Assembly: GCA_903851415.1 (NCBI GenBank)
Contig: CAINOE010000019.1
Coordinates: 62,001-126,000, forward strand
DNA length: 64,000 bases
Source of the DNA: an uncultured Rhodopila sp.
GTDB lineage: Bacteria > Pseudomonadota > Alphaproteobacteria > Acetobacterales > Acetobacteraceae
Reading direction: 5' to 3'
Position numbers and translations under genes: made by a program. Positions within the stretch are counted from its first letter, which is position 1. Each line of letters begins with the position of its first letter. Below the pieces are notes generated by a model, which worked only from the letters and a program-made list of their open reading frames with translations, was not told the origin of the DNA and made no database searches. Below are positions 20,585 through 29,807 of this stretch, piece by piece.

Positions 20585-21310
20585 GCGCGGGATATAGGGC
20601 AGTTCCGGGCTCTGTGGAAACCGGACGATCGCGGACGCAGTTTTGGCATGCCGGGGTCAGGTGGCGGTATGGTGCGGGCGTCCGTGGCCGGCACTCGGCG
20701 CCGGCATCGGAAGCGTATCATGAAGTTTTCGGCAGCCGCCCGGCGTCAAGGCGGACAGGCCGCCGGCGGGACCGGCTGGTTCCTGATGCCGGCGGGAACG
20801 AGCGGCGGATCGTGCGTCCAATCATCCGGGTCCGCACCCAAATGAGCGTGTTCAGGAGGATCTGGCGATCCCGGGCCTCACGGAACCGATCTTGCGAACC
20901 CTGGAAATGGCTGCGCGAAACGCTATCACCGTTCGTCGCATCGGCATCGGAGCGCCGGCTGCGAACGGTGCGGTCACAAATCAGAGCGAGCTGGATCGCC
21001 CCCTTCCGGTGACAGGTGGCCGAGGCGATCGGCCCGGGGCGAACCCTCTCGCCGCAGGCCACACAGCGCAACGAAGGCACTTGGTACCCGACCCCGCACG
21101 ACGGCGCCCGATCGCCCCCGGGGACCCGCCGCGGTCGCTGATTGCGCCATGCGCTACCGCCCGCCCGGACCGGACCTGATCATGATCCAGGACAGCGAAC
21201 GCGGCATGTGGCGGCCCGGGGGCACCGCCTGAGCCCTGCGCATATCAGATACGAGGCAGCACCGAATGGCGCTGCGCGCTGCCGAATGTAAAGTTTTCCG
21301 ATTCCCGGCG
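20585..21310. other. Long intergenic stretch between uvrD and the first PEP-CTERM gene
   Basis: About 725 bp without a well-supported gene. On the minus strand 21080-20718 a GTG-started frame of 120 codons begins with two CxxC-like elements (RCVACGERV and ATCHRKG), which resembles a small zinc-ribbon protein, but its second half is Arg-rich and unconvincing. Near the right end, 21287-21303 reads TGTAAAGTTTTCCGATT, close to the 17-bp element upstream of both PEP-CTERM genes. I see no sigma-54 site at the matching distance. Confidence 0.35.
20718..21080 (-). CDS. Possible small zinc-ribbon-like hypothetical protein (120 aa)
   Basis: A GTG start at 21080 gives PSLRCVACGERVRPGPIASATCHRKG, with Cys at about residues 6, 9 and 23 and a fourth Cys at LALICDR, spaced as in a four-Cys zinc site. 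The remainder is rich in Arg and Ser and lacks a clear fold. No Shine-Dalgarno sequence is obvious. It is upstream of uvrD in the same direction. I list it as a weak candidate only. Confidence 0.22.
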   Translation of the reverse strand: MPSLRCVACGERVRPGPIASATCHRKGAIQLALICDRTVRSRRSDADATNGDSVSRSHFQGSQDRFREARDRQILLNTLIWVRTRMIGRTIRRSFPPASGTSRSRRRPVRLDAGRLPKTS

Positions 21311-21880
21311 TCAGGCGCGGCGGCGGGCGAAGGCAGCCAGGCCGATCAGGCCGCTGCCCAATAGCGCCAGAGAAGCCGGCTCCGGAACCACGGTCGCGTC
21401 GGTGAAAGAAACGCTGATACTGCTGCCCGCGCCGTTTTGGGAATACGCAGCGGTGTAGTCGACGTTCGACGAGGTGAGCGCGCTGCCTGATGAAACGGTC
21501 GTCTCGCTGATAGTGCCCACGGCGTCGATACCGAGCGTGGTTGCACCAGTCTGAACCGAAGTGACAGTCAAATCCTCGGTGAAGATACCGAGAGACGTCG
21601 TGAAGGATTTTGTGAAGGTCGCGCCCAGGGTGACCGGTGTCGGGTTTGTCAGAGAAATGGTGCCAAGCGACGCGAGGCCAGTGTTATCCGTTCCCAGTGA
21701 TGTGACCTTGTACGTGCCCGCGTTCGAAATCGTGGTTGCCGTTGTTATATCACCCGTCGAGGCGGTGAGCACACCAAAAGCGGAAACGCTGAAGGTCGTG
21801 TCAATCGCAGTGGCGAAAGCGGTGCCGGAGAACGCCAAAGTGGCTGCTACAGCCGCCCCGGCGAATTTGGTAACTCTCAT
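21311..21880 (-). CDS. PEP-CTERM sorted surface/secreted protein (189 aa)
   Basis: A signal peptide (MRVTKFAGAAVAATLAFSG, cleavage after FATA) leads into a Thr/Ser/Gly-rich, beta-strand-like region. The C-terminus has the PEP-CTERM tripartite signal: VPEPASLALLGSG motif, a hydrophobic helix and a terminal ARRRA. In this system an exosortase (EpsH/XrtA type, not in this window) cleaves at PEP and transfers the protein to the envelope or exopolysaccharide. ATG 21880 follows GGAA. Upstream lie a sigma-54 type promoter (21946-21960) and a 17-bp element (22023-22039). The body matches no family that I know. Confidence 0.88.
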   Translation of the reverse strand: MRVTKFAGAAVAATLAFSGTAFATAIDTTFSVSAFGVLTASTGDITTATTISNAGTYKVTSLGTDNTGLASLGTISLTNPTPVTLGATFTKSFTTSLGIFTEDLTVTSVQTGATTLGIDAVGTISETTVSSGSALTSSNVDYTAAYSQNGAGSSISVSFTDATVVPEPASLALLGSGLIGLAAFARRRA

Positions 21881-21945: not shown

Positions 21946-21960
21946 GCAATCGCTATGCCA
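21946..21960 (-). promoter_or_regulatory. Sigma-54 (RpoN) -24/-12 promoter of the first PEP-CTERM gene
   Basis: Minus strand reads TGGCATAGCGATTGC, matching the RpoN consensus TGGCAYRNNNNTTGC at every defined position. It predicts a start site near 21934 and a leader of about 55 nt before ATG 21880. RpoN promoters need an AAA+ activator bound upstream. Confidence 0.8.
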
Positions 21961-22022
21961 GCCTTGAAATACCTGTTAAATCAATCGGTTAACCGAGCCC
22001 CCGGGTGACGGCCGATAGAAAC

Positions 22023-22039
22023 TGTAAAATTTGCCGACA
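22023..22039 (-). promoter_or_regulatory. Putative activator-binding site (UAS) of the first PEP-CTERM gene
   Basis: Plus strand reads TGTAAAATTTGCCGACA. It begins 63 bp upstream of the edge of the -24 box. The same element, TGTAAAGAATTCCGACA, sits at the same distance before the second PEP-CTERM gene. This fits an enhancer for a PrsR-type RpoN-dependent regulator, which has been linked to PEP-CTERM genes in other bacteria; the identity here is inference. Confidence 0.65.
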
Positions 22040-22540: not shown

Positions 22541-22557
22541 TGTCGGAAAACTTTACA
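22541..22557 (+). promoter_or_regulatory. Orphan copy of the 17-bp PEP-CTERM upstream element
   Basis: Plus strand TGTCGGAAAACTTTACA, the reverse orientation of the functional-looking sites. No -24/-12 pair is found 63 bp downstream (to the right), and only the 3' end of a minus-strand gene follows. An identical 17-mer is at 27722-27738. Role unknown. Confidence 0.4.
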
Positions 22558-22696: not shown

Positions 22697-25600
22697 TCAG
22701 TCGTCCTCCGGGACAAGCCCCTTCAACCCGTCGAGAAGCGGCCCGAGGTGGTGCCGGTAGGGCCGCCATCGTCCAACCGAGGTTGCGTAAATCGGCTGGC
22801 GAACCTGCCAATGGCTCGCGGTCATGACCACGCGCCTGGTTTGGTGAAATGACAGGCAGGCCGGGTCCCAGGGCAGCCCGAGATAGTCGATCACCCTCCG
22901 GGCTTCCCGCTCAAGATCCTCGACGACGTCCTCGTAATAGACTTCCAGAAAGCGGCCCGGCAGAACATGGCACCAATGATCCAGGAGCCGTTCCATCTCA
23001 CGCGCGTAGGCCGCGCACTCCTCGAGCGTTTCGGTCCACGCCAAAACGCTTTCGGAAAACTCCTGCGTATAGCAGGACCAGGCCACGTCCCTCGGGTCCC
23101 GGCGGCAGACGATGATACGTGCGTGCGGCAACAACGCAGCGATGTGGCCTAACCAGGTCACGTTTCCCGGCGATTTGTTGATGACCCGCCTGGCGTCGCC
23201 TCCCTCTTGCCGAAGCCGCGCGATCAATGCCTCCGTGGCCGCGCGGCACTGCCGGACATCCCATTGCTCCGGCGGGGACAGCAGCATGGCTCTGGCTTCG
23301 CTGCCGAGCAGATCGAGGAAGTCGCCTTGCTCCCCCAGGCTGCTCACCGCCGGATGGCTTGCCGCGATCTGATCCACCAATGTCGTCCCTGAGCGCGGCG
23401 ACCCGACGATGAAAGCGGGCCTATCGCTGTCGATGCCGAACGGAACCATCGCGGCAACCATGCCGCGGGAAAAATGCGCGATCAGGCCGTCAACCAGTCC
23501 GGCCCGCTCGGCTTTCGCCCGGGCGGGGTCGTAGCCGAACCGGGATGTTCGCCTCGCCGCGTTGGCCTCTTCAAACAAAGCGAAGGCCGCCTCGTAGTCG
23601 CCGCTCTTGTCGCGCATTTTGGCCAGCGCGAAGGCTACAGCCGCCTTATCCGCGGCCGGTGACGCCGGATTTTTTCGCACCGCGGCCATGGCCTCAAGCA
23701 CGTCGCCGGTTGGCTCGGCGTTGGCGATCCCGACCAGTCCGGCCAATACGCCGCCGCTGAGCGGATTCAGCGACAGAGCCTTCCTGTAATGATCGGCAGC
23801 CGCGTTGTGGTCGCCCGCCATGGCAAGCGCATAGCCAAGAAACCGCCAGCTATCGGCCAAGGTGTCGTCGATCGCCAGCGCCTGCCGCAGCAGTTCGATC
23901 GCGTTTTCGACCTGCCGGTTCCGCAGATAAGCGTTGCCTGCCTGCTGAAGCAATTCCGCGCTTGCGGGGTTGCACGCCAAAGCCTGCTGGCTGGCCACGA
24001 CACTGGCCTCATACTCACCCTGTTCGGCCAACACGAGTGTCAGCCCCGAAAGCACATCCTGATCGGCCGGATTCAGGATATCCGCCAGGCGCCACAGCCG
24101 GGCGGAGTCCTCAAAGCGCCTTTGCCGGCACAGCACCGTCGCCATTCCGACCAACGACCTGTAGCTGTCAGGCTCCAGCGCGGTTGCCCGCTCCATCGCG
24201 CCGGCGGCGCCGGCCAGGTCGGTGTCGAGCAGGGCGTAGCCGAGTTGGCGCCACGCGTCAGCCCATGAGGGATCGTTTTCGATCGCCACCCGCGCCGACG
24301 CGGCGGCCGCGGCCGTGTCGCCGGCGGCATTGCAGGCATGCGCGAGGTCGCTTCTGAGAGTCACATCGTTGGGCCGCTGCTCGACAGCCCGAAGGAGCCA
24401 GGGGATCGCGTTCCCGGGTTGACGCTGGCTCAGCCACAGGACGCCAAGCAGATGATGCAAGCGCGGATTGTCCGGCTCTCTCGCGAAAACGGCGTCATAA
24501 ATCTGCTTCGCGGCGGCGAGGCGGCCGCAGCCATGATGAACCATGCCGATCGACAGGGCATGGTCTGCATCAGCCAGCAGCAGGTTCCAGTCCTCGGCAT
24601 CCGGTTCAGGGATCAGCCCGAGCAGCCCGAAAATCAGCGGGGTCAGATGCCGCCGGTAGTTCTTCCAGCGGCCGGTCGCGGTCGCATAGAGGGGTTGCCG
24701 CACCTGCCAGGCGCTCACGGTCATGACCGCGCGGGGGTTCTCGTGAAACGAGAGGCAGGCCGGATCCCATTCCAGACCGAGAAAGCCGATCAGCCGCCGG
24801 CTCTGGCCTTCGAGGTCGGACACGATCGTTTCATAGTCGACCTCCAGCATCCGCAGCGGCAGCGTCTGCCGCCAGTGAGCGGCAAGCCGGGCGGTTTGCT
24901 GCGCCTGCTCCGCGCAATCGGCCAGATCGTAGCACCACGCCATCTCACTCGCGAAATGGTGGAAATAGGCCGACAGGCAAACGTCGCGCATGTCGCGATT
25001 GCAGAAAATGACCCGGGCCCGCGGAAACAGAACGGCGATATAGCCAAGCAGGAAGATGTTGTCAGGCAGCTTGTCGGTGATCCGCCTGGCTGCGCCGCTG
25101 CCATCGAGGGCACGGTACTCGGCCAGGCACTGCTCCGCCTCCGCCCTGGCATCGGCCAGCCGCCACTCCGCGGGGGAACCGGCCTCTTTTTCAGCATTCA
25201 GGCGGGTGATCGCCGCGCCGGCAAGATTTCGCTCGCCGGCACCGAAAACGGCCGGATGGCTGGCGACGATCTGGTCCACGAGGGTCGTCCCCGATCGCGG
25301 CATCCCGACGATGAAGACAAGTTCGTCGGTCGGATCGCCGTATCCCGCCAGCCCAGCGAACAACTCCGGTTTGAACACTGACATCGCCCGGGCGACGGAA
25401 TGCAAGAGCCGCTCCGGCTGAAAGGCCCGGCCGGCTGCCTTGCGGGTGGCGGAAACCAGCCGGTTGCCGATCGCATAGGCTGCAAAAGCCTCATCATAAT
25501 CGCCCGCGCGATCCAGTGCCGGTCCAAGTCCGAAAGCCGCCGCGATTCTGTCCCGCGCGGGCGCCTCCTCGTTGCGCAGAAGCGCCGCCAGAACCGCGGC

Positions 25601-26539
25601 ATCACCATCGCCCGCGGTCAACCGGCCGAGCGCGGCCAGGCCTTGTCTTGCCTTGACCGACGACGGATCGCGCGCAATGGCCTCCCGGATCTCGGCCTCG
25701 GCCTCGTCGAAACGGCCGAGACATGTCAGGCTGTGACTGAGCAGGAGCCGGAGATCGGTCTTGTCCGGAACCAGGGCCAACGCGCGCCGGCAGGCATCCT
25801 TGCACCGAAGCGGACGCTGCTGGAGGTGGTAGGCAAAGGCCAGGCCGCCGCTCGCATCCGACGAGCGCGGATCGATCGCGACGGCGCGCTCATAGACCCG
25901 AACGGCATCGTTCGCGAATGCGCCGGTCAGCCAGATGCCGGCAACTTTCAGCACTGTGCGGATCCGTTCGTCATCCACGAGCATTGCCGTTTCGAACGCC
26001 TCCCGGGCTTCGGCGATTCGGCCGAGCTCCAGAAGCGATGTGCCGAGATGCAGATGCGCTTCGGCGTCGGCCGGTTGCAGACGGACCGCGGTGCGCAGAG
26101 GTGGCTCGGCGGCTGCGAGATCTCCCTGGTCCAGCAGAGCGCGCCCGAGCAAAAGATGGGCGGGCTGGAGATTGGGATCGGCTGCGAGGGCGCGCCTGGC
26201 AGACTCCGCGGCTGCCCCGGCCTGCCCGGTCGCCTGCTGAACCCTCGCCAGATTGCACAGCGCTTCGGCGAATTCGGGAATTTGCCCGACGGCCTGTTCC
26301 AGAACCTGCTGCGACTCGGCGTATCGGTTGGTATCCTGCAACAGAACGCCGAGGAAGTTCAGCGCGTCCGGATGATCCGGTTCGGTGTCCAGAACCTGCC
26401 TGTATGCTCGTTCGGCTCCGCCAAGGTCGCCCGCCTCATGCAGGGCGACGGCTTCGTCCAGAAGCTGCTCGAGATTACCCTGATGCTCATCCGACACCGG
26501 CTCCGGTCCCTCAATCAGAACGTAGGCGATGCCGGTCAT
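22697..26539 (-). CDS. Tandem TPR-sulfotransferase protein (1280 aa)
   Basis: Two complete TPR-plus-sulfotransferase units in one chain. TPR arrays occupy about residues 20-340 and 660-1000 (for example RALAADPNLQPAHLLLGRAL). Each is followed by a sulfotransferase domain with the PAPS 5'-phosphosulfate loop: GMPRSGTTLVDQIVASHP at about 410 and GSPRSGTTLVDQIAASHP at about 1043. Each unit also has the 3'-phosphate-binding region and the terminal 'MT(V/A)S.WQVRQP(L/I)YAT' segment (SAWQVRQPLYAT; SHWQVRQPIYAT). The enzyme should transfer sulfate from PAPS to a protein or glycan bound by the TPRs. Usual family members have a single unit of 500-700 residues. It lies between two PEP-CTERM genes. An in-frame GTG at about 26497 is an alternative start. 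Confidence 0.9.
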   Translation of the reverse strand: MTGIAYVLIEGPEPVSDEHQGNLEQLLDEAVALHEAGDLGGAERAYRQVLDTEPDHPDALNFLGVLLQDTNRYAESQQVLEQAVGQIPEFAEALCNLARVQQATGQAGAAAESARRALAADPNLQPAHLLLGRALLDQGDLAAAEPPLRTAVRLQPADAEAHLHLGTSLLELGRIAEAREAFETAMLVDDERIRTVLKVAGIWLTGAFANDAVRVYERAVAIDPRSSDASGGLAFAYHLQQRPLRCKDACRRALALVPDKTDLRLLLSHSLTCLGRFDEAEAEIREAIARDPSSVKARQGLAALGRLTAGDGDAAVLAALLRNEEAPARDRIAAAFGLGPALDRAGDYDEAFAAYAIGNRLVSATRKAAGRAFQPERLLHSVARAMSVFKPELFAGLAGYGDPTDELVFIVGMPRSGTTLVDQIVASHPAVFGAGERNLAGAAITRLNAEKEAGSPAEWRLADARAEAEQCLAEYRALDGSGAARRITDKLPDNIFLLGYIAVLFPRARVIFCNRDMRDVCLSAYFHHFASEMAWCYDLADCAEQAQQTARLAAHWRQTLPLRMLEVDYETIVSDLEGQSRRLIGFLGLEWDPACLSFHENPRAVMTVSAWQVRQPLYATATGRWKNYRRHLTPLIFGLLGLIPEPDAEDWNLLLADADHALSIGMVHHGCGRLAAAKQIYDAVFAREPDNPRLHHLLGVLWLSQRQPGNAIPWLLRAVEQRPNDVTLRSDLAHACNAAGDTAAAAASARVAIENDPSWADAWRQLGYALLDTDLAGAAGAMERATALEPDSYRSLVGMATVLCRQRRFEDSARLWRLADILNPADQDVLSGLTLVLAEQGEYEASVVASQQALACNPASAELLQQAGNAYLRNRQVENAIELLRQALAIDDTLADSWRFLGYALAMAGDHNAAADHYRKALSLNPLSGGVLAGLVGIANAEPTGDVLEAMAAVRKNPASPAADKAAVAFALAKMRDKSGDYEAAFALFEEANAARRTSRFGYDPARAKAERAGLVDGLIAHFSRGMVAAMVPFGIDSDRPAFIVGSPRSGTTLVDQIAASHPAVSSLGEQGDFLDLLGSEARAMLLSPPEQWDVRQCRAATEALIARLRQEGGDARRVINKSPGNVTWLGHIAALLPHARIIVCRRDPRDVAWSCYTQEFSESVLAWTETLEECAAYAREMERLLDHWCHVLPGRFLEVYYEDVVEDLEREARRVIDYLGLPWDPACLSFHQTRRVVMTASHWQVRQPIYATSVGRWRPYRHHLGPLLDGLKGLVPEDD

Positions 26540-26643: not shown

Positions 26644-27372
26644 TCAAGGCTTCCGGCGACGGCGCAAGACGCCCAGACCGGTGAGACCCGCACCGATAAC
26701 CGCCAACGAAGCCGGCTCCGGAATAAAGTAATCGTAGGTGATCGACACCGTCGCATCGGCGTATGTCGTGACGCCGGCAGTTGAAATGGTGCTGCCTTGT
26801 GGCGACAGGAGATTCCAGCGTTTGAAATCCAACAGGGCCTGGAAGGTGCCAGTCCCCACGAAACCGGCAACGGCGGACGCCGCCACCGGCGGCGCGGTGG
26901 CGGAGGCAAAGTTTGGGGTGGGGAGAGTGCCTGTCCAGTCCAACGTCCCATTGGCGGCCAAGGGTGCCGCGGTGATCGCCACAGTTCTGAGTTTAGGCGT
27001 GCTGATGGTAGGGAAACCGCTCGGGGTTCCGCTGGTCGCGGGCTTCAGTATCAGGTTGATGCCGCCGGCAAAGGTGACATCCGTATGCGAAGCGGTGGTG
27101 TTTAGCAGTGTGCCCGTGCTTTGAGTTAGACTCATCGTTTCCTTCAATACGACGCCCGTCAGCTTTCCATACACGGGACTGGCCTGATTGAACGTGACCG
27201 TCGGTATGGTGTCGTCCGCCTGGCCGGAGAACGGAATGGTCTCCGTGCAATACGTAGTTATAGATGACAAAGATCCGCACACCGTACCGGCTTCGGCTGC
27301 GCCCGGGGCCGTTAGCGCCAAAGCACTCCCGAGCGCGAGCGTGCTCGACGAGGTAAGCAAGGTAAACTTCAT
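26644..27372 (-). CDS. PEP-CTERM protein, choice-of-anchor-like (242 aa)
   Basis: Signal peptide MKFTLLTSSSTLALGSALAL with cleavage after AEA, then a beta-rich body (IPFSGQADDTIPTVTFNQAS, VTFAGGINLIL, DYFIPEPAS) and the PEP-CTERM tail: IPEPASLAVIGAGLTGLG and a terminal RRRRKP. The body resembles 'choice-of-anchor' proteins described with PEP-CTERM or other sorting tails. It should be exported by Sec and processed by an exosortase encoded elsewhere. Expression is probably RpoN-dependent, from 27408-27422 with an upstream element at 27485-27501. It shares no body similarity that I can see with the PEP-CTERM protein at 21311. Confidence 0.88.
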   Translation of the reverse strand: MKFTLLTSSSTLALGSALALTAPGAAEAGTVCGSLSSITTYCTETIPFSGQADDTIPTVTFNQASPVYGKLTGVVLKETMSLTQSTGTLLNTTASHTDVTFAGGINLILKPATSGTPSGFPTISTPKLRTVAITAAPLAANGTLDWTGTLPTPNFASATAPPVAASAVAGFVGTGTFQALLDFKRWNLLSPQGSTISTAGVTTYADATVSITYDYFIPEPASLAVIGAGLTGLGVLRRRRKP

Positions 27373-27407
27373 CGCGTGGTCCTTCGCAGCGAGTTATCAG
27401 CCACCAA

Positions 27408-27422
27408 GCAAACGGCATGCCG
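27408..27422 (-). promoter_or_regulatory. Sigma-54 -24/-12 promoter of the second PEP-CTERM gene
   Basis: Minus strand reads CGGCATGCCGTTTGC, one mismatch (C for T) from TGGCAYRNNNNTTGC. Predicted start near 27396, about 24 nt before ATG 27372. Same internal spacing as the site at 21946-21960. Confidence 0.75.
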
Positions 27423-27484
27423 TTCACAAAAACCGTTGCGGGTCAGACCATTACGGGATTCGCACAAAAGGGCGGCGGACAAAG

Positions 27485-27501
27485 TGTAAAGAATTCCGAC
27501 A
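27485..27501 (-). promoter_or_regulatory. Putative activator-binding site of the second PEP-CTERM gene
   Basis: Plus strand TGTAAAGAATTCCGACA. It starts 63 bp from the end of the -24 box, identical to the distance at the first PEP-CTERM gene. Conserved halves are TGTAAA and CCGACA with a 5-bp centre. Confidence 0.65.
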
Positions 27502-27811
27502 GCCGCACCGGAACGAGGTCCGGCAATCGGCCGCGAAAGCCCGGGAGAGCCGCCCCTCCGGTTCGCCGGCCGCCACCCGTCAGCATGCCGATCGGCCGAA
27601 TCAGCGGGGAATCGGCGCGCGGAGCCGCCTATGCCATCGGAAAAAGGTCCATCCCCGGCCAGCAGCGTCCCGCCTGCGACGCTTTGTCGCGGTGTTCACC
27701 GCCGGTTGGACCGCCCGGTGGTGTCGGAAAACTTTACACAGCGGACGGCGCCATCCGAACCACGCGGCACGCAATCAAGACATCGTGTGCCGCGGCGGCG
27801 CCGGGTTGTGG
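27502..27811. other. Intergenic, contains an orphan 17-bp element
   Basis: No coding frame is convincing in these 310 bp. At 27722-27738 the plus strand reads TGTCGGAAAACTTTACA, identical to 22541-22557 and to a stretch inside metF at 28036-28052. No RpoN promoter lies at the expected distance to its right. The gap ends at the metF stop. Confidence 0.5.
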
Positions 27812-28759
27812 CTAAACCTTCCCCGGGGTTGCCCGCACGCCCAGCACATGCGCGATCGCGTAGGTCAGATCCGGCCGGTTCAGCGTGTAGAAGTGGAACT
27901 CGTCCACCCCGTTTGCCTGCAGCAGCCGCACCTGCTCCGCGGCGATCACCATCCCGACCATGCGCCGGGTTTCCGGATCGTCTTCCGTGCCCTCGAACAG
28001 CCGCCCCATCCAGGCCGGGACACTGGCCCCGCACATGTCGGAAAACTTTACAATCTGGGCATAATTGGAAACCGGCATGATCCCCGGCACGATCGGCGCG
28101 GTGATCCCGGCCGCGAGGCACAGATCCAGGAACCGCAGATAGGTCGAGGTATCGAAAAAATACTGCGTGATCGCCCGCGTTGCGCCGGCATCCAGTTTGC
28201 GCTTCAGGTTTTCCAGATCGGCGACCGGGCTCGGCGCCGCCGGATGCACCTCCGGATAGGCCGCCACGGAAATCTCAAAATCCGCCACGTTGCGCAGACC
28301 TGCCACCAGATCGGCCGCGAACGCATACCCGCCCGGATAAGGCGCATAGACGGTGCCATGCGGCGGATCGCCGCGCAGCGCGACGATGTGGCGGATGCCG
28401 GCATTCCAATAGTCGCGGGCAACCTGATCCACTGCCTCCCGCACCGCGCCAACGCAGGTCAGATGCGCGGCCGGAACAAGGCTGGTTTCCTTGACGATCC
28501 GCGCCACCGTCGCATGGGTCCGCGCCTGGGTGGAGCCGCCCGCGCCATAGGTCACCGACACGAAGCGCGGCGCCAGCGGCTCCAGCCGCTTGATGCAGGT
28601 CCAAAGCTGCTGTTCCAAAGCCTCGGTCCGCGGCGGGGAGAACTCGAACGACAGCTTCGGCGCCGGCAGGTCGGCGGTCCGCACCGGCAGGCCGGAGACT
28701 CGCGGGCCGGTCAGCCAACGGTGCAACGTGTCGGAGGCGGGGTCGATCGGCGTGTCCAT
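27812..28759 (-). CDS. metF: 5,10-methylenetetrahydrofolate reductase (315 aa)
   Basis: FAD enzyme that makes 5-methyl-THF for methionine synthesis. Recognisable parts: KLSFEFSPPRTEALEQQL (catalytic Glu region), SVTYGAGGST, AHLTCVGAVREAV, IVALRGDPP, AITQYFFD and IMPVSNYAQIVKFSDMCGA, ending EFHFYTLNRPDLTYAIAHVL. Length is typical. ATG 28759 is chosen because the codons upstream, to 28846, show no conservation and this ATG follows GGAG. Divergent from mlaA. No SAM riboswitch is visible in the 220-bp gap. The KFSDM codons happen to spell the 17-bp PEP-CTERM element. Confidence 0.95.
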   Translation of the reverse strand: MDTPIDPASDTLHRWLTGPRVSGLPVRTADLPAPKLSFEFSPPRTEALEQQLWTCIKRLEPLAPRFVSVTYGAGGSTQARTHATVARIVKETSLVPAAHLTCVGAVREAVDQVARDYWNAGIRHIVALRGDPPHGTVYAPYPGGYAFAADLVAGLRNVADFEISVAAYPEVHPAAPSPVADLENLKRKLDAGATRAITQYFFDTSTYLRFLDLCLAAGITAPIVPGIMPVSNYAQIVKFSDMCGASVPAWMGRLFEGTEDDPETRRMVGMVIAAEQVRLLQANGVDEFHFYTLNRPDLTYAIAHVLGVRATPGKV

Positions 28760-28982
28760 AGGCTCTGAATCTCCGGTTTCGGAAATAAAAGCAAGCGACC
28801 GCGTGCTTCTGCGGCCGGACGGGATTCCCATGGGACCCGGCCGCATGTTAGACGCAACGAGTCGAGCTGTTCACGGAAAACTCAATCTCAGGGTGTTCCA
28901 ATGTGAATCAGACTCGCCATGTTTGATTGCGCCCGGATGCGCGCGCCGATCGCGCGCGTCCCGCTCTGGCCTGAGGAAGCTG

Positions 28983-29807
28983 ATGCGATCTGTCCCACGT
29001 GCCCGCCCCCCGTTTCGTGGGACTTCATGGCTTCTGGCCTTGTCCGCGATCCTTCTCATCGGTTTGGCCGGATGCGCCACAAGGCCGCCGGCGGACGATC
29101 CGGACGCCGTGGCGGACTATGAGCAAACGAACGACCCGCTGGAGCCGACCAACCGGGTGTTCTACGCGATCAACAACGGGATCGATACGGTCGTCCTGAA
29201 GCCGGCGGCGCAGGCGTATCGCTTCGTCCTGCCCGGCCCGGTGCGGCAGGGCATCCACAATGCGCTGTCCAACATCGGCACGCCGATGCAGTTGACGAAT
29301 GACATGCTGCAGGGCAAGCCGCGGCGCGCGGGCGATACCGCGATGCGCTTTGTCATCAACACAACCGTCGGCGTGCTCGGCATCTTCGACGTCGCCAAGA
29401 AGTGGGGCTATCCGGACCACGATTCCGATTTCGGCATGACCCTGGCGAACTGGGGCGTGCCGGAGGGCCCGTTCCTGTTCCTGCCGGTCCTGGGACCGAG
29501 CGACCCGCGCGACGCCGTCGGTTTCGGCGTCAACATCGCGCTCGATCCGTTCACCTGGGTCGGCGGCCCGAACAACACCGGCCTTAAGGCTTTCAACTGG
29601 TCGCGCTGGGGCGTAAACGCTTTGGATTCCCGCGAACGGGTGCTCGACACCCTGGATCAGATCAAGAAGACGGCACTCGACCCGTATGCCACATTCCGCA
29701 GCCTTTATCGCCAGCACCGCCATTCTCAGATTGAAGAGATGCGTAACGACAACCGCGCCACCGTCCCCGTCTGGTTCCCGCAGGCGGCGAACGAGTCCAG
29801 CAAGTAA
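28983..29807 (+). CDS. mlaA: MlaA (VacJ) phospholipid-transport lipoprotein (274 aa)
   Basis: Outer-membrane component of the Mla pathway, which removes phospholipid from the outer leaflet. A lipoprotein signal ends in lipobox LAGC (LLIGLAGCATRPP). The MlaA domain begins DPLEPTNRVFYAINNGID and continues RQGIHNALSNIGTPMQLTND, FVINTTVGVLGIFDVAKKWG, DFGMTLANWGVPEGPFLFLP and GPSDPRDAVGFGVN. The ATG at 28983 is preceded by GAGGAAG. It is followed 31 bp later by mlaC, so the pair forms an operon; mlaD/E/F are not in the window. Confidence 0.95.
   Translation: MRSVPRARPPFRGTSWLLALSAILLIGLAGCATRPPADDPDAVADYEQTNDPLEPTNRVFYAINNGIDTVVLKPAAQAYRFVLPGPVRQGIHNALSNIGTPMQLTNDMLQGKPRRAGDTAMRFVINTTVGVLGIFDVAKKWGYPDHDSDFGMTLANWGVPEGPFLFLPVLGPSDPRDAVGFGVNIALDPFTWVGGPNNTGLKAFNWSRWGVNALDSRERVLDTLDQIKKTALDPYATFRSLYRQHRHSQIEEMRNDNRATVPVWFPQAANESSK

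What the first reader, a model, noticed from the sequence alone, without database searches (positions are those of the whole stretch)
27372..27501. Second PEP-CTERM gene repeats the same architecture with identical 63-bp spacing
CGGCATGCCGTTTGC at 27408-27422 and TGTAAAGAATTCCGACA at 27485-27501 have the same order and the same distance as at the first gene, although the two proteins share only signal peptide and PEP-CTERM tail. Two independent genes with the same geometry argue against chance and define a local regulon.
Basis: seen in the sequence. Interest (0 to 1): 0.8.

Follow-up and report, generated by a model that had tools for sequence, protein, structure and literature searches.

The report
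PEP-CTERM promoter with hidden third site
Two surface-protein genes carry the same known two-part on-switch at an identical 62-base spacing; comparison with relatives adds a likely DNA-bending site held in a fixed place between the two parts, and shows a further copy of the switch's box inside the coding sequence of the neighbouring metabolic gene metF.

Summary
In detail: both PEP-CTERM genes have TGTCGG..TTTACA, exactly 62 bp, then a sigma-54 -24/-12 element. This is the published PEP-CTERM promoter (Haft 2006: motif 1, ~62.8 nt, motif 2), so the core is known; the genome holds PrsK, PrsR, PrsT and exosortase A. It is not a local regulon: two more promoters with the same 62-bp gap lie on other contigs, and only 3 of 16 PEP-CTERM genes have one.

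Relatives show features absent from the Haft passages I read. (1) The gap clusters at about 51, 62 and 74 bp, one helical turn apart; the first two clusters recur in eight other genera. (2) An IHF consensus sits at a fixed register 24 bp before the sigma-54 element (57 of 81 genus promoters score >=7/9, 3.5 expected), so the likely machine is PrsR box, IHF bend, sigma-54. It is weakest (6/9) at the gene reported. (3) A perfect box inside metF uses rare codons and coincides with Asp in place of Ala in MetF within a 12-species clade: likely selection on DNA, perhaps as a distal enhancer. (4) 14 of 71 promoter-bearing genes carry another box after the stop codon; a palindromic box class exists. 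Binding of PrsR and IHF is predicted, not shown.

The parts
26644..27372 (-). gene 2: PEP-CTERM protein with choice-of-anchor E domain, 242 aa
   Evidence: NF033208 34.7 bits (cut-off 23.8), TIGR02595 22.8 (cut-off 16); PF07589 21.9 (cut-off 20.7)
27408..27422 (-). sigma-54 -24/-12 element CGGCATGCCGTTTGC of gene 2
   Evidence: 9 of 10 scored positions
27441..27453 (-). degenerate IHF-like site TAATGGTCTGACC (6 of 9 scored positions) at the register seen in relatives
27485..27501 (-). promoter-proximal PrsR box TGTCGGAATTCTTTACA of gene 2
27722..27738 (+). extra box TGTCGGAAAACTTTACA, inverted relative to gene 2, 237 bp upstream of the proximal box
27812..28762 (-). metF, methylenetetrahydrofolate reductase (region used as query; the ORF runs to 28846)
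   Evidence: TIGR00676 329.9 bits, cut-off 293.7; PF02219 311.1 bits
28036..28052 (+). perfect box inside the metF coding sequence, in codons I-V-K-F-S-D-M, inverted relative to gene 2, 551 bp upstream of its proximal box
21311..21880 (-). gene 1: PEP-CTERM protein, 189 aa
   Evidence: TIGR02595 26.1 bits (cut-off 16)
21946..21960 (-). sigma-54 element TGGCATAGCGATTGC of gene 1
21979..21991 (-). perfect IHF consensus TAACCGATTGATT (9 of 9) between box and sigma-54 element
22023..22039 (-). promoter-proximal PrsR box TGTCGGCAAATTTTACA of gene 1
22541..22557 (+). extra box TGTCGGAAAACTTTACA, inverted, 518 bp upstream of gene 1's proximal box
21287..21303 (-). box-like AATCGGAAAACTTTACA, same orientation as gene 1, 7 bp after its stop codon

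Best explanation
Each of the two genes has the published PEP-CTERM promoter, a 17-bp box and a sigma-54 element exactly 62 bp apart, where the response regulator PrsR likely binds the box and would open the sigma-54 polymerase, helped by IHF that is predicted to bend the DNA at a site held 24 bp before the sigma-54 element. Shown by sequence: box, gap, sigma-54 element, IHF consensus at a fixed register in 57 of 81 genus promoters, clustered gaps, PrsK/PrsR/PrsT/exosortase A in the genome. Inferred: that PrsR binds the box, that IHF binds the middle site, that the gap is quantised because box and promoter must face each other across the bend. Further boxes (inverted upstream copies, one of them inside metF, and copies after stop codons) are likely auxiliary PrsR sites that raise local occupancy or act from a distance; this last step is the least certain.
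For: Published architecture and cognate regulators: motif 1 ending TTTACA, spacer mean 62.8 (SD 10.6), motif 2 with GG/GC, PrsK/PrsR/PrsT matching its phylogenetic profile. Same parts here: PrsR 624.6 bits vs cut-off 502.6, PrsK 548 vs 300, PrsT 570 vs 312.2, exosortase XrtA 294.4 vs 208; PrsK, PrsR and PrsT are in tandem on C133. Gaps in this genome: 62 in the 4 promoters found. Genus: class II boxes n=71: 49-52 in 9, 60-64 in 57, 74-77 in 5; palindromic class I n=10: 62 in 9, 63 in 1 (gaps 44-83 scanned, best pairing per gene). Other genera of the family: 59 sites, 50-53 in 21, 61-64 in 36, 71 and 74 once each, none at 54-60; cluster means 51.0 and 62.1. Other classes: 62, 62, 51 and 62 in 2 genomes (from the printed coordinates). 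IHF consensus: best score >=8/9 in 43 of 81 genus promoters vs 3.0 expected, 34 of the 43 at exactly -24; at that register +-1, >=7 in 57 of 81 vs 3.5 from half-wise shuffles; outside the genus 22 of 36 (0.75 expected) and, for the short gap, 12 of 21 (0.59 expected). The 4 own promoters score 9, 6, 7 and 8 of 9 at the same offset. [quoted passage not shown]
Against: No binding or expression data for this organism were found. In the genus, short-gap promoters mostly lack the IHF match (2 of 9), unlike those outside it. Over all boxes, not only those before PEP-CTERM genes, 10 of 95 box/sigma-54 pairings in the range 20-130 bp fall outside the three clusters. Of 298 other genomes sampled across the phylum only 2 matched the composite pattern, so the test outside the family is small. 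G001 (97% complete) has boxes and 29 PEP-CTERM matches but no PrsR over cut-off; G003, G019 and G030 have PrsR but no strict box. The presence of IHF genes was not searched. 13 of 16 PEP-CTERM genes here have no such promoter.
Confidence: 0.78

Rival explanations
1. The box is bound by another NtrC-family activator, not PrsR.
For: The genome has 11 other sigma-54 activator-type hits at 234 to 366 bits; box-bearing G001 lacks PrsR over cut-off.
Against: PrsR is the only hit over its curated cut-off in this genome (624.5 bits). 25 of 29 box-bearing genus genomes have PrsR over cut-off, and a 26th (G020) has a stretch matching positions 1-270 at 405.8 bits, below cut-off. The one genome with neither boxes nor PrsR (G008) also has no PEP-CTERM match.
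Confidence: 0.12
2. The box in metF is there only because the MetF protein carries V-K-F-S-D-M; it has no regulatory role.
For: G007 and G017 keep a perfect metF box without a PEP-CTERM gene next door. Within the 12-species clade the link between box and neighbouring PEP-CTERM gene is not significant (Fisher p 0.15).
Against: 21 of 30 genus MetF have Ala or Gly in place of the Asp, and S-D-M occurs in 5 of 80 named records, all with the box at 0-1 mismatch. The Val codon is GTA in 7 of 12 clade members against 4 of 274 other Val codons, and the box window ranks first of 302 for conserved rare codons.
Confidence: 0.3
3. The shared geometry is only a recent duplication of one promoter.
For: Tandem PEP-CTERM genes with boxes before, between and after occur in a relative (L161).
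Against: The two 62-bp spacers match at only 22 of 62 positions, and the same gap recurs in 8 other genera and 2 genomes of other classes.
Confidence: 0.03
4. The middle element is an A+T-rich or flexible tract and not an IHF site.
For: Positions on both sides of the element are A+T-rich. IHF genes were not searched.
Against: The 13-mer has both halves of the (recalled) IHF consensus: information 1.42 and 0.87 bits at the two A's, 0.95 to 1.69 at TTGA, against 0.03 to 0.19 at three of the four positions between, 0.46 at the fourth. Shuffles that keep base composition by half give 3.5 vs 57 of 81.
Confidence: 0.2

Closest known systems
PEP-CTERM box / PrsR-sigma-54 promoter (Haft et al. 2006, PMC1569441)
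   Same: 17-nt motif ending TTTACA, ~62-nt spacer, -24/-12 element, upstream of PEP-CTERM genes, PrsK/PrsR/PrsT in the genome; repeated motif 1 was noted there
   Different: The spacer clusters at whole-turn steps and carries an IHF consensus at a fixed register; [quoted passage not shown] an 18-bp palindromic class TGTAARGNNNNCYTTACA occurs
IHF-assisted sigma-54 promoters (NifA/nifH and xyl Pu types recalled; the IHF role is stated in PMC6296734, passages)
   Same: activator site, IHF site, sigma-54 element in that order
   Different: here the activator box is close and at stepwise distances; the 17-bp box is asymmetric
Intragenic sigma-54 sites in E. coli (PMC4591121, search listing with start of abstract)
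   Same: sigma-54 regulation encoded inside coding sequence, conserved
   Different: there the sigma factor binds; here it is a predicted activator box, and no sigma-54 element follows it specifically

Membership tests
PEP-CTERM box promoter (Haft 2006) | 17-nt motif 1 ending TTTACA | tested here: met
   (the published logo itself is a figure and was not seen)
PEP-CTERM box promoter (Haft 2006) | spacer within 32-92 nt, mean 62.8 | tested here: met
   62 nt at both window genes, C105 and C22
PEP-CTERM box promoter (Haft 2006) | motif 2 with -24 GG / -12 GC | tested here: met
PEP-CTERM box promoter (Haft 2006) | precedes a PEP-CTERM gene | tested here: met
   TIGR02595 over cut-off for both proteins
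PEP-CTERM box promoter (Haft 2006) | PrsK, PrsR, PrsT in the same genome | tested here: met
   all over curated cut-off
PEP-CTERM box promoter (Haft 2006) | expression depends on RpoN and PrsR | not testable with these tools
   needs mutants
IHF-assisted sigma-54 promoter | IHF consensus between activator site and sigma-54 element | tested here: inconclusive
   9/9 at gene 1 but 6/9 at gene 2; 57 of 81 genus promoters >=7; consensus recalled
IHF-assisted sigma-54 promoter | IHF binds and bends there | not testable with these tools
   needs a footprint; IHF genes not searched
PrsT (TIGR02917) for the TPR gene between the two PEP-CTERM genes | over the curated cut-off | tested here: not met
   168.5 bits vs 312.2; it is a TPR-sulfotransferase

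The most novel reading that the evidence does not exclude
PEP-CTERM promoters are three-part machines (PrsR box, IHF bend, sigma-54) whose geometry is counted in helical turns from the bend, and a working PrsR enhancer has been written into metF, with a change to the MetF protein itself (Asp in place of Ala at the box's end), and kept by selection on DNA for the neighbouring surface-protein gene.
Probability: 0.4. Interest if true: 0.7.

Novelty: new variant of a known kind. Interest (0 to 1): 0.5.

Why it matters
The 2006 promoter is described as two boxes with a loose spacer. A fixed IHF site and whole-turn spacing would give it a testable mechanism and a more specific search pattern for the exosortase regulon. 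The metF box, if functional, would be a regulatory site that has overwritten a conserved residue of an enzyme, with sister species that lack it as a natural control.

Tried and rejected
Antisense sigma-54 promoter fed by the metF box: a sigma-54-like element lies 133 bp on in 9 of 12 clade members, but also in G027, G023 and G011 that have no good box, and not in G002, G018 and G009 that have one; it is a coding coincidence.

Inverted orientation of distal boxes as a rule: true for the four exact TGTCGGAAAACTTTACA copies in this genome, but relatives also have same-orientation repeats, so I do not claim it.

Terminator-like hairpins just after the stop-codon boxes: suggested by eye on a few sequences, but a strict test found a stem with T's in 2 of 14; dropped.

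Strict co-occurrence of PrsR and box in the genus: 25 of 33 genomes have both, 4 box only, 3 PrsR only, 1 neither. The PrsR search used E <= 1e-150; the looser (E <= 1e-90) on the 5 genomes without found none over cut-off, and a 405.8-bit stretch in G020.

Box and PEP-CTERM neighbour at metF: 6 of 8 with the box (<=1 mismatch) vs 2 of 22 without, p 0.001 over 30 genomes, but the genomes are related, one of the 6 (G002) has the gene on the other strand, and within the clade p is 0.15. Downstream flanks were only 1.5 kb in 8 of the 30, 1.3 kb in G028 and 0.7 kb in G030.

Rows dropped: three g13 hits (not PEP boxes by eye) before the gap count; two hits with gaps 71 and 74, as their printed strings were cut. 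Searches used loci fetched around boxes, some overlapping, so the fractions are not population estimates; the PEP-CTERM regular expression also picks false ORFs (the 174 rows include some). The listing was cut by the tool: no G032 site and 5 of 6 G031 sites could be fetched.

Full report
What was checked. The proteins share only the C-terminal tail in a pairwise BLAST; both pass the PEP-CTERM model, and gene 2 also passes the choice-of-anchor E model. The 17-mer is far above chance in the window: 4 matches with up to 3 mismatches against 0.03.

What it is. Haft et al. 2006 (PMC1569441; passages, section 7) described this promoter: a 17-nt motif ending TTTACA, a spacer of 62.8 nt on average (SD 10.6), and a sigma-54 element, upstream of 99 of 167 proteobacterial PEP-CTERM genes, with PrsK, PrsR and PrsT as the matching proteins. 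Here PrsK, PrsR and PrsT are in tandem on contig C133 and pass their cut-offs, and exosortase A lies on the same contig. The best named metF relatives are Rhodopila and Acidisphaera records, Acetobacteraceae (the window's own records may be left out there). So the core finding is a new member of a known kind.

The regulon in this genome. Of 16 PEP-CTERM genes, 3 have box plus sigma-54: the two window genes and one on C105. A fourth promoter on C22 precedes an ORF of about 60 aa that reads like a small membrane protein, with a counterpart behind a like promoter in G023. All four gaps are 62 bp. This contradicts 'local' but supports 'regulon'.

Stepwise spacing. In 117 loci (907,915 bases, some overlapping) I found 156 boxes with up to 2 mismatches; the reversed and complemented motifs gave 0. 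Over all these boxes 85 of 95 pairings with a sigma-54 element at 20-130 bp fall at 49-52, 60-64 or 74-77; 10 do not (32, 34, 40, 70, 84, 85, 101, 115 and twice 127). Taking the best pairing for each PEP-CTERM gene, the 81 genus promoters fall at 49-52 (9), 60-64 (67) and 74-77 (5), with none between, although 44-83 was scanned (means 50.6, 62.1 and 74.8). A pattern search over 200 genomes (22 with a match, 1 match to the control pattern) gave 59 sites in 8 other genera: 21 at 50-53, 36 at 61-64, one each at 71 and 74, none at 54-60. A phylum-wide sample of 299 genomes, with a somewhat narrower pattern, added four sites in two genomes of other classes at 62, 62, 51 and 62; the other 296 besides G000 had none. 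Steps of 11 to 12 bp fit one turn of DNA. Same-face placement of activator subsites is described for CbrB (PMC6296734, passages).

A third element. Aligned on the sigma-54 element, the strongest conserved positions of the 62-bp spacers are AA at -30 and -29 and TTGA at -24 to -21, within YAANNNNTTGATW. That is the IHF consensus (recalled). It scores 8 or 9 of 9 in 43 of 81 promoters against 3.0 in shuffles, 34 of these at exactly the same base. At that register +-1, 57 of 81 reach 7 against 3.5, and outside the genus 22 of 36 and, for short gaps, 12 of 21 against 0.75 and 0.59. In the three of five long-gap promoters with a match at that register, the IHF site stays about 25 bp from sigma-54 and the box moves out (42-43 instead of 31 bp). 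So the bend and the promoter look like one rigid unit and the activator box moves in whole turns. In the genus the short-gap class mostly lacks a clear IHF site (2 of 9), which speaks against the element being needed there. Gene 1 has a perfect site, gene 2 only 6 of 9. The held text of Haft 2006 has no 'IHF'; a search for PEP-CTERM with integration host factor listed 3 papers, none on these promoters by title and abstract start.

Box inside metF. The copy at 28036-28052 reads ATT GTA AAG TTT TCC GAC ATG in metF. Of 30 genus metF genes, 6 carry it perfectly and 2 with one mismatch, at the same codons; the other 22 have 3 to 9 mismatches. These 8, and G005 with 3 mismatches, encode S-D-M; the other 21 have Ala or Gly in place of Asp. 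A MetF tree built without these codons puts all 8 in a 12-species clade (100/97), with G005, G023, G027 and G011 as members without a good box; one gain and some losses is my reading. GTA is used at the box Val in 7 of 12 members and at 4 of 274 other Val positions; the box window ranks first of 302 windows for conserved rare codons. A PEP-CTERM gene lies next to metF in 6 of 8 with the box and in 2 of 22 without, but G007 and G017 have the box and no such neighbour, and within the clade the link is not significant. The promoter boxes of the neighbour genes in five other clade members and in G032 are palindromes within one mismatch of TGTAARGNNNNCYTTACA, also 62-63 bp from sigma-54.

Boxes after stop codons. 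Of 71 PEP-CTERM genes with a promoter, 14 have a same-orientation box (up to 3 mismatches) within 200 bp after the stop and 3 an inverted one; of 64 without a promoter and with full flanks, 6 and 0; 40 permuted motifs gave none. One of the 14 is also the promoter box of the next gene (L161); the others have no sigma-54 element in reach. No paper search was aimed at this feature; the passages of Haft 2006 that I read speak only of upstream sites. I have no firm function for them.

Judgement. The spacing rule and IHF element are well supported as sequence facts and inferred as mechanism. The metF box is the most surprising part and the least settled.

Noticed in passing
own genome C22:66482-66575 (L053), and L179: A full promoter (box, 62 bp, TGGCATGCGGCTTGC, IHF 8/9) precedes an ORF of about 60 aa without a PEP-CTERM tail, alike in G023: a likely extra regulon member.
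   Followed up: partly
21287-21303; L097, L134, L163, L175, L191 and others: Same-orientation boxes after PEP-CTERM stop codons, 6-14 bp away in those named, up to 85 bp in others.
   Followed up: partly
L100, L117, L143, L162, L165, L190, L195, L201, L240, L253: Second box class, an 18-bp palindrome TGTAARGNNNNCYTTACA (up to 2 mismatches), at the same 62-63 bp from sigma-54.
   Followed up: partly
22697-26539; L238, L239: TPR-sulfotransferase of 1280 aa between the two PEP-CTERM genes; homologues (39-41% over most of the length) lie beside metF, convergent to it, in G007 and G017, where the PEP-CTERM gene is missing.
   Followed up: partly
G001 (same genus): 29 PEP-CTERM matches and 3 boxes but no PrsR over cut-off in a 97% complete assembly.
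   Followed up: partly
28983-29807: MlaA lipoprotein gene divergent from metF.
   Followed up: no
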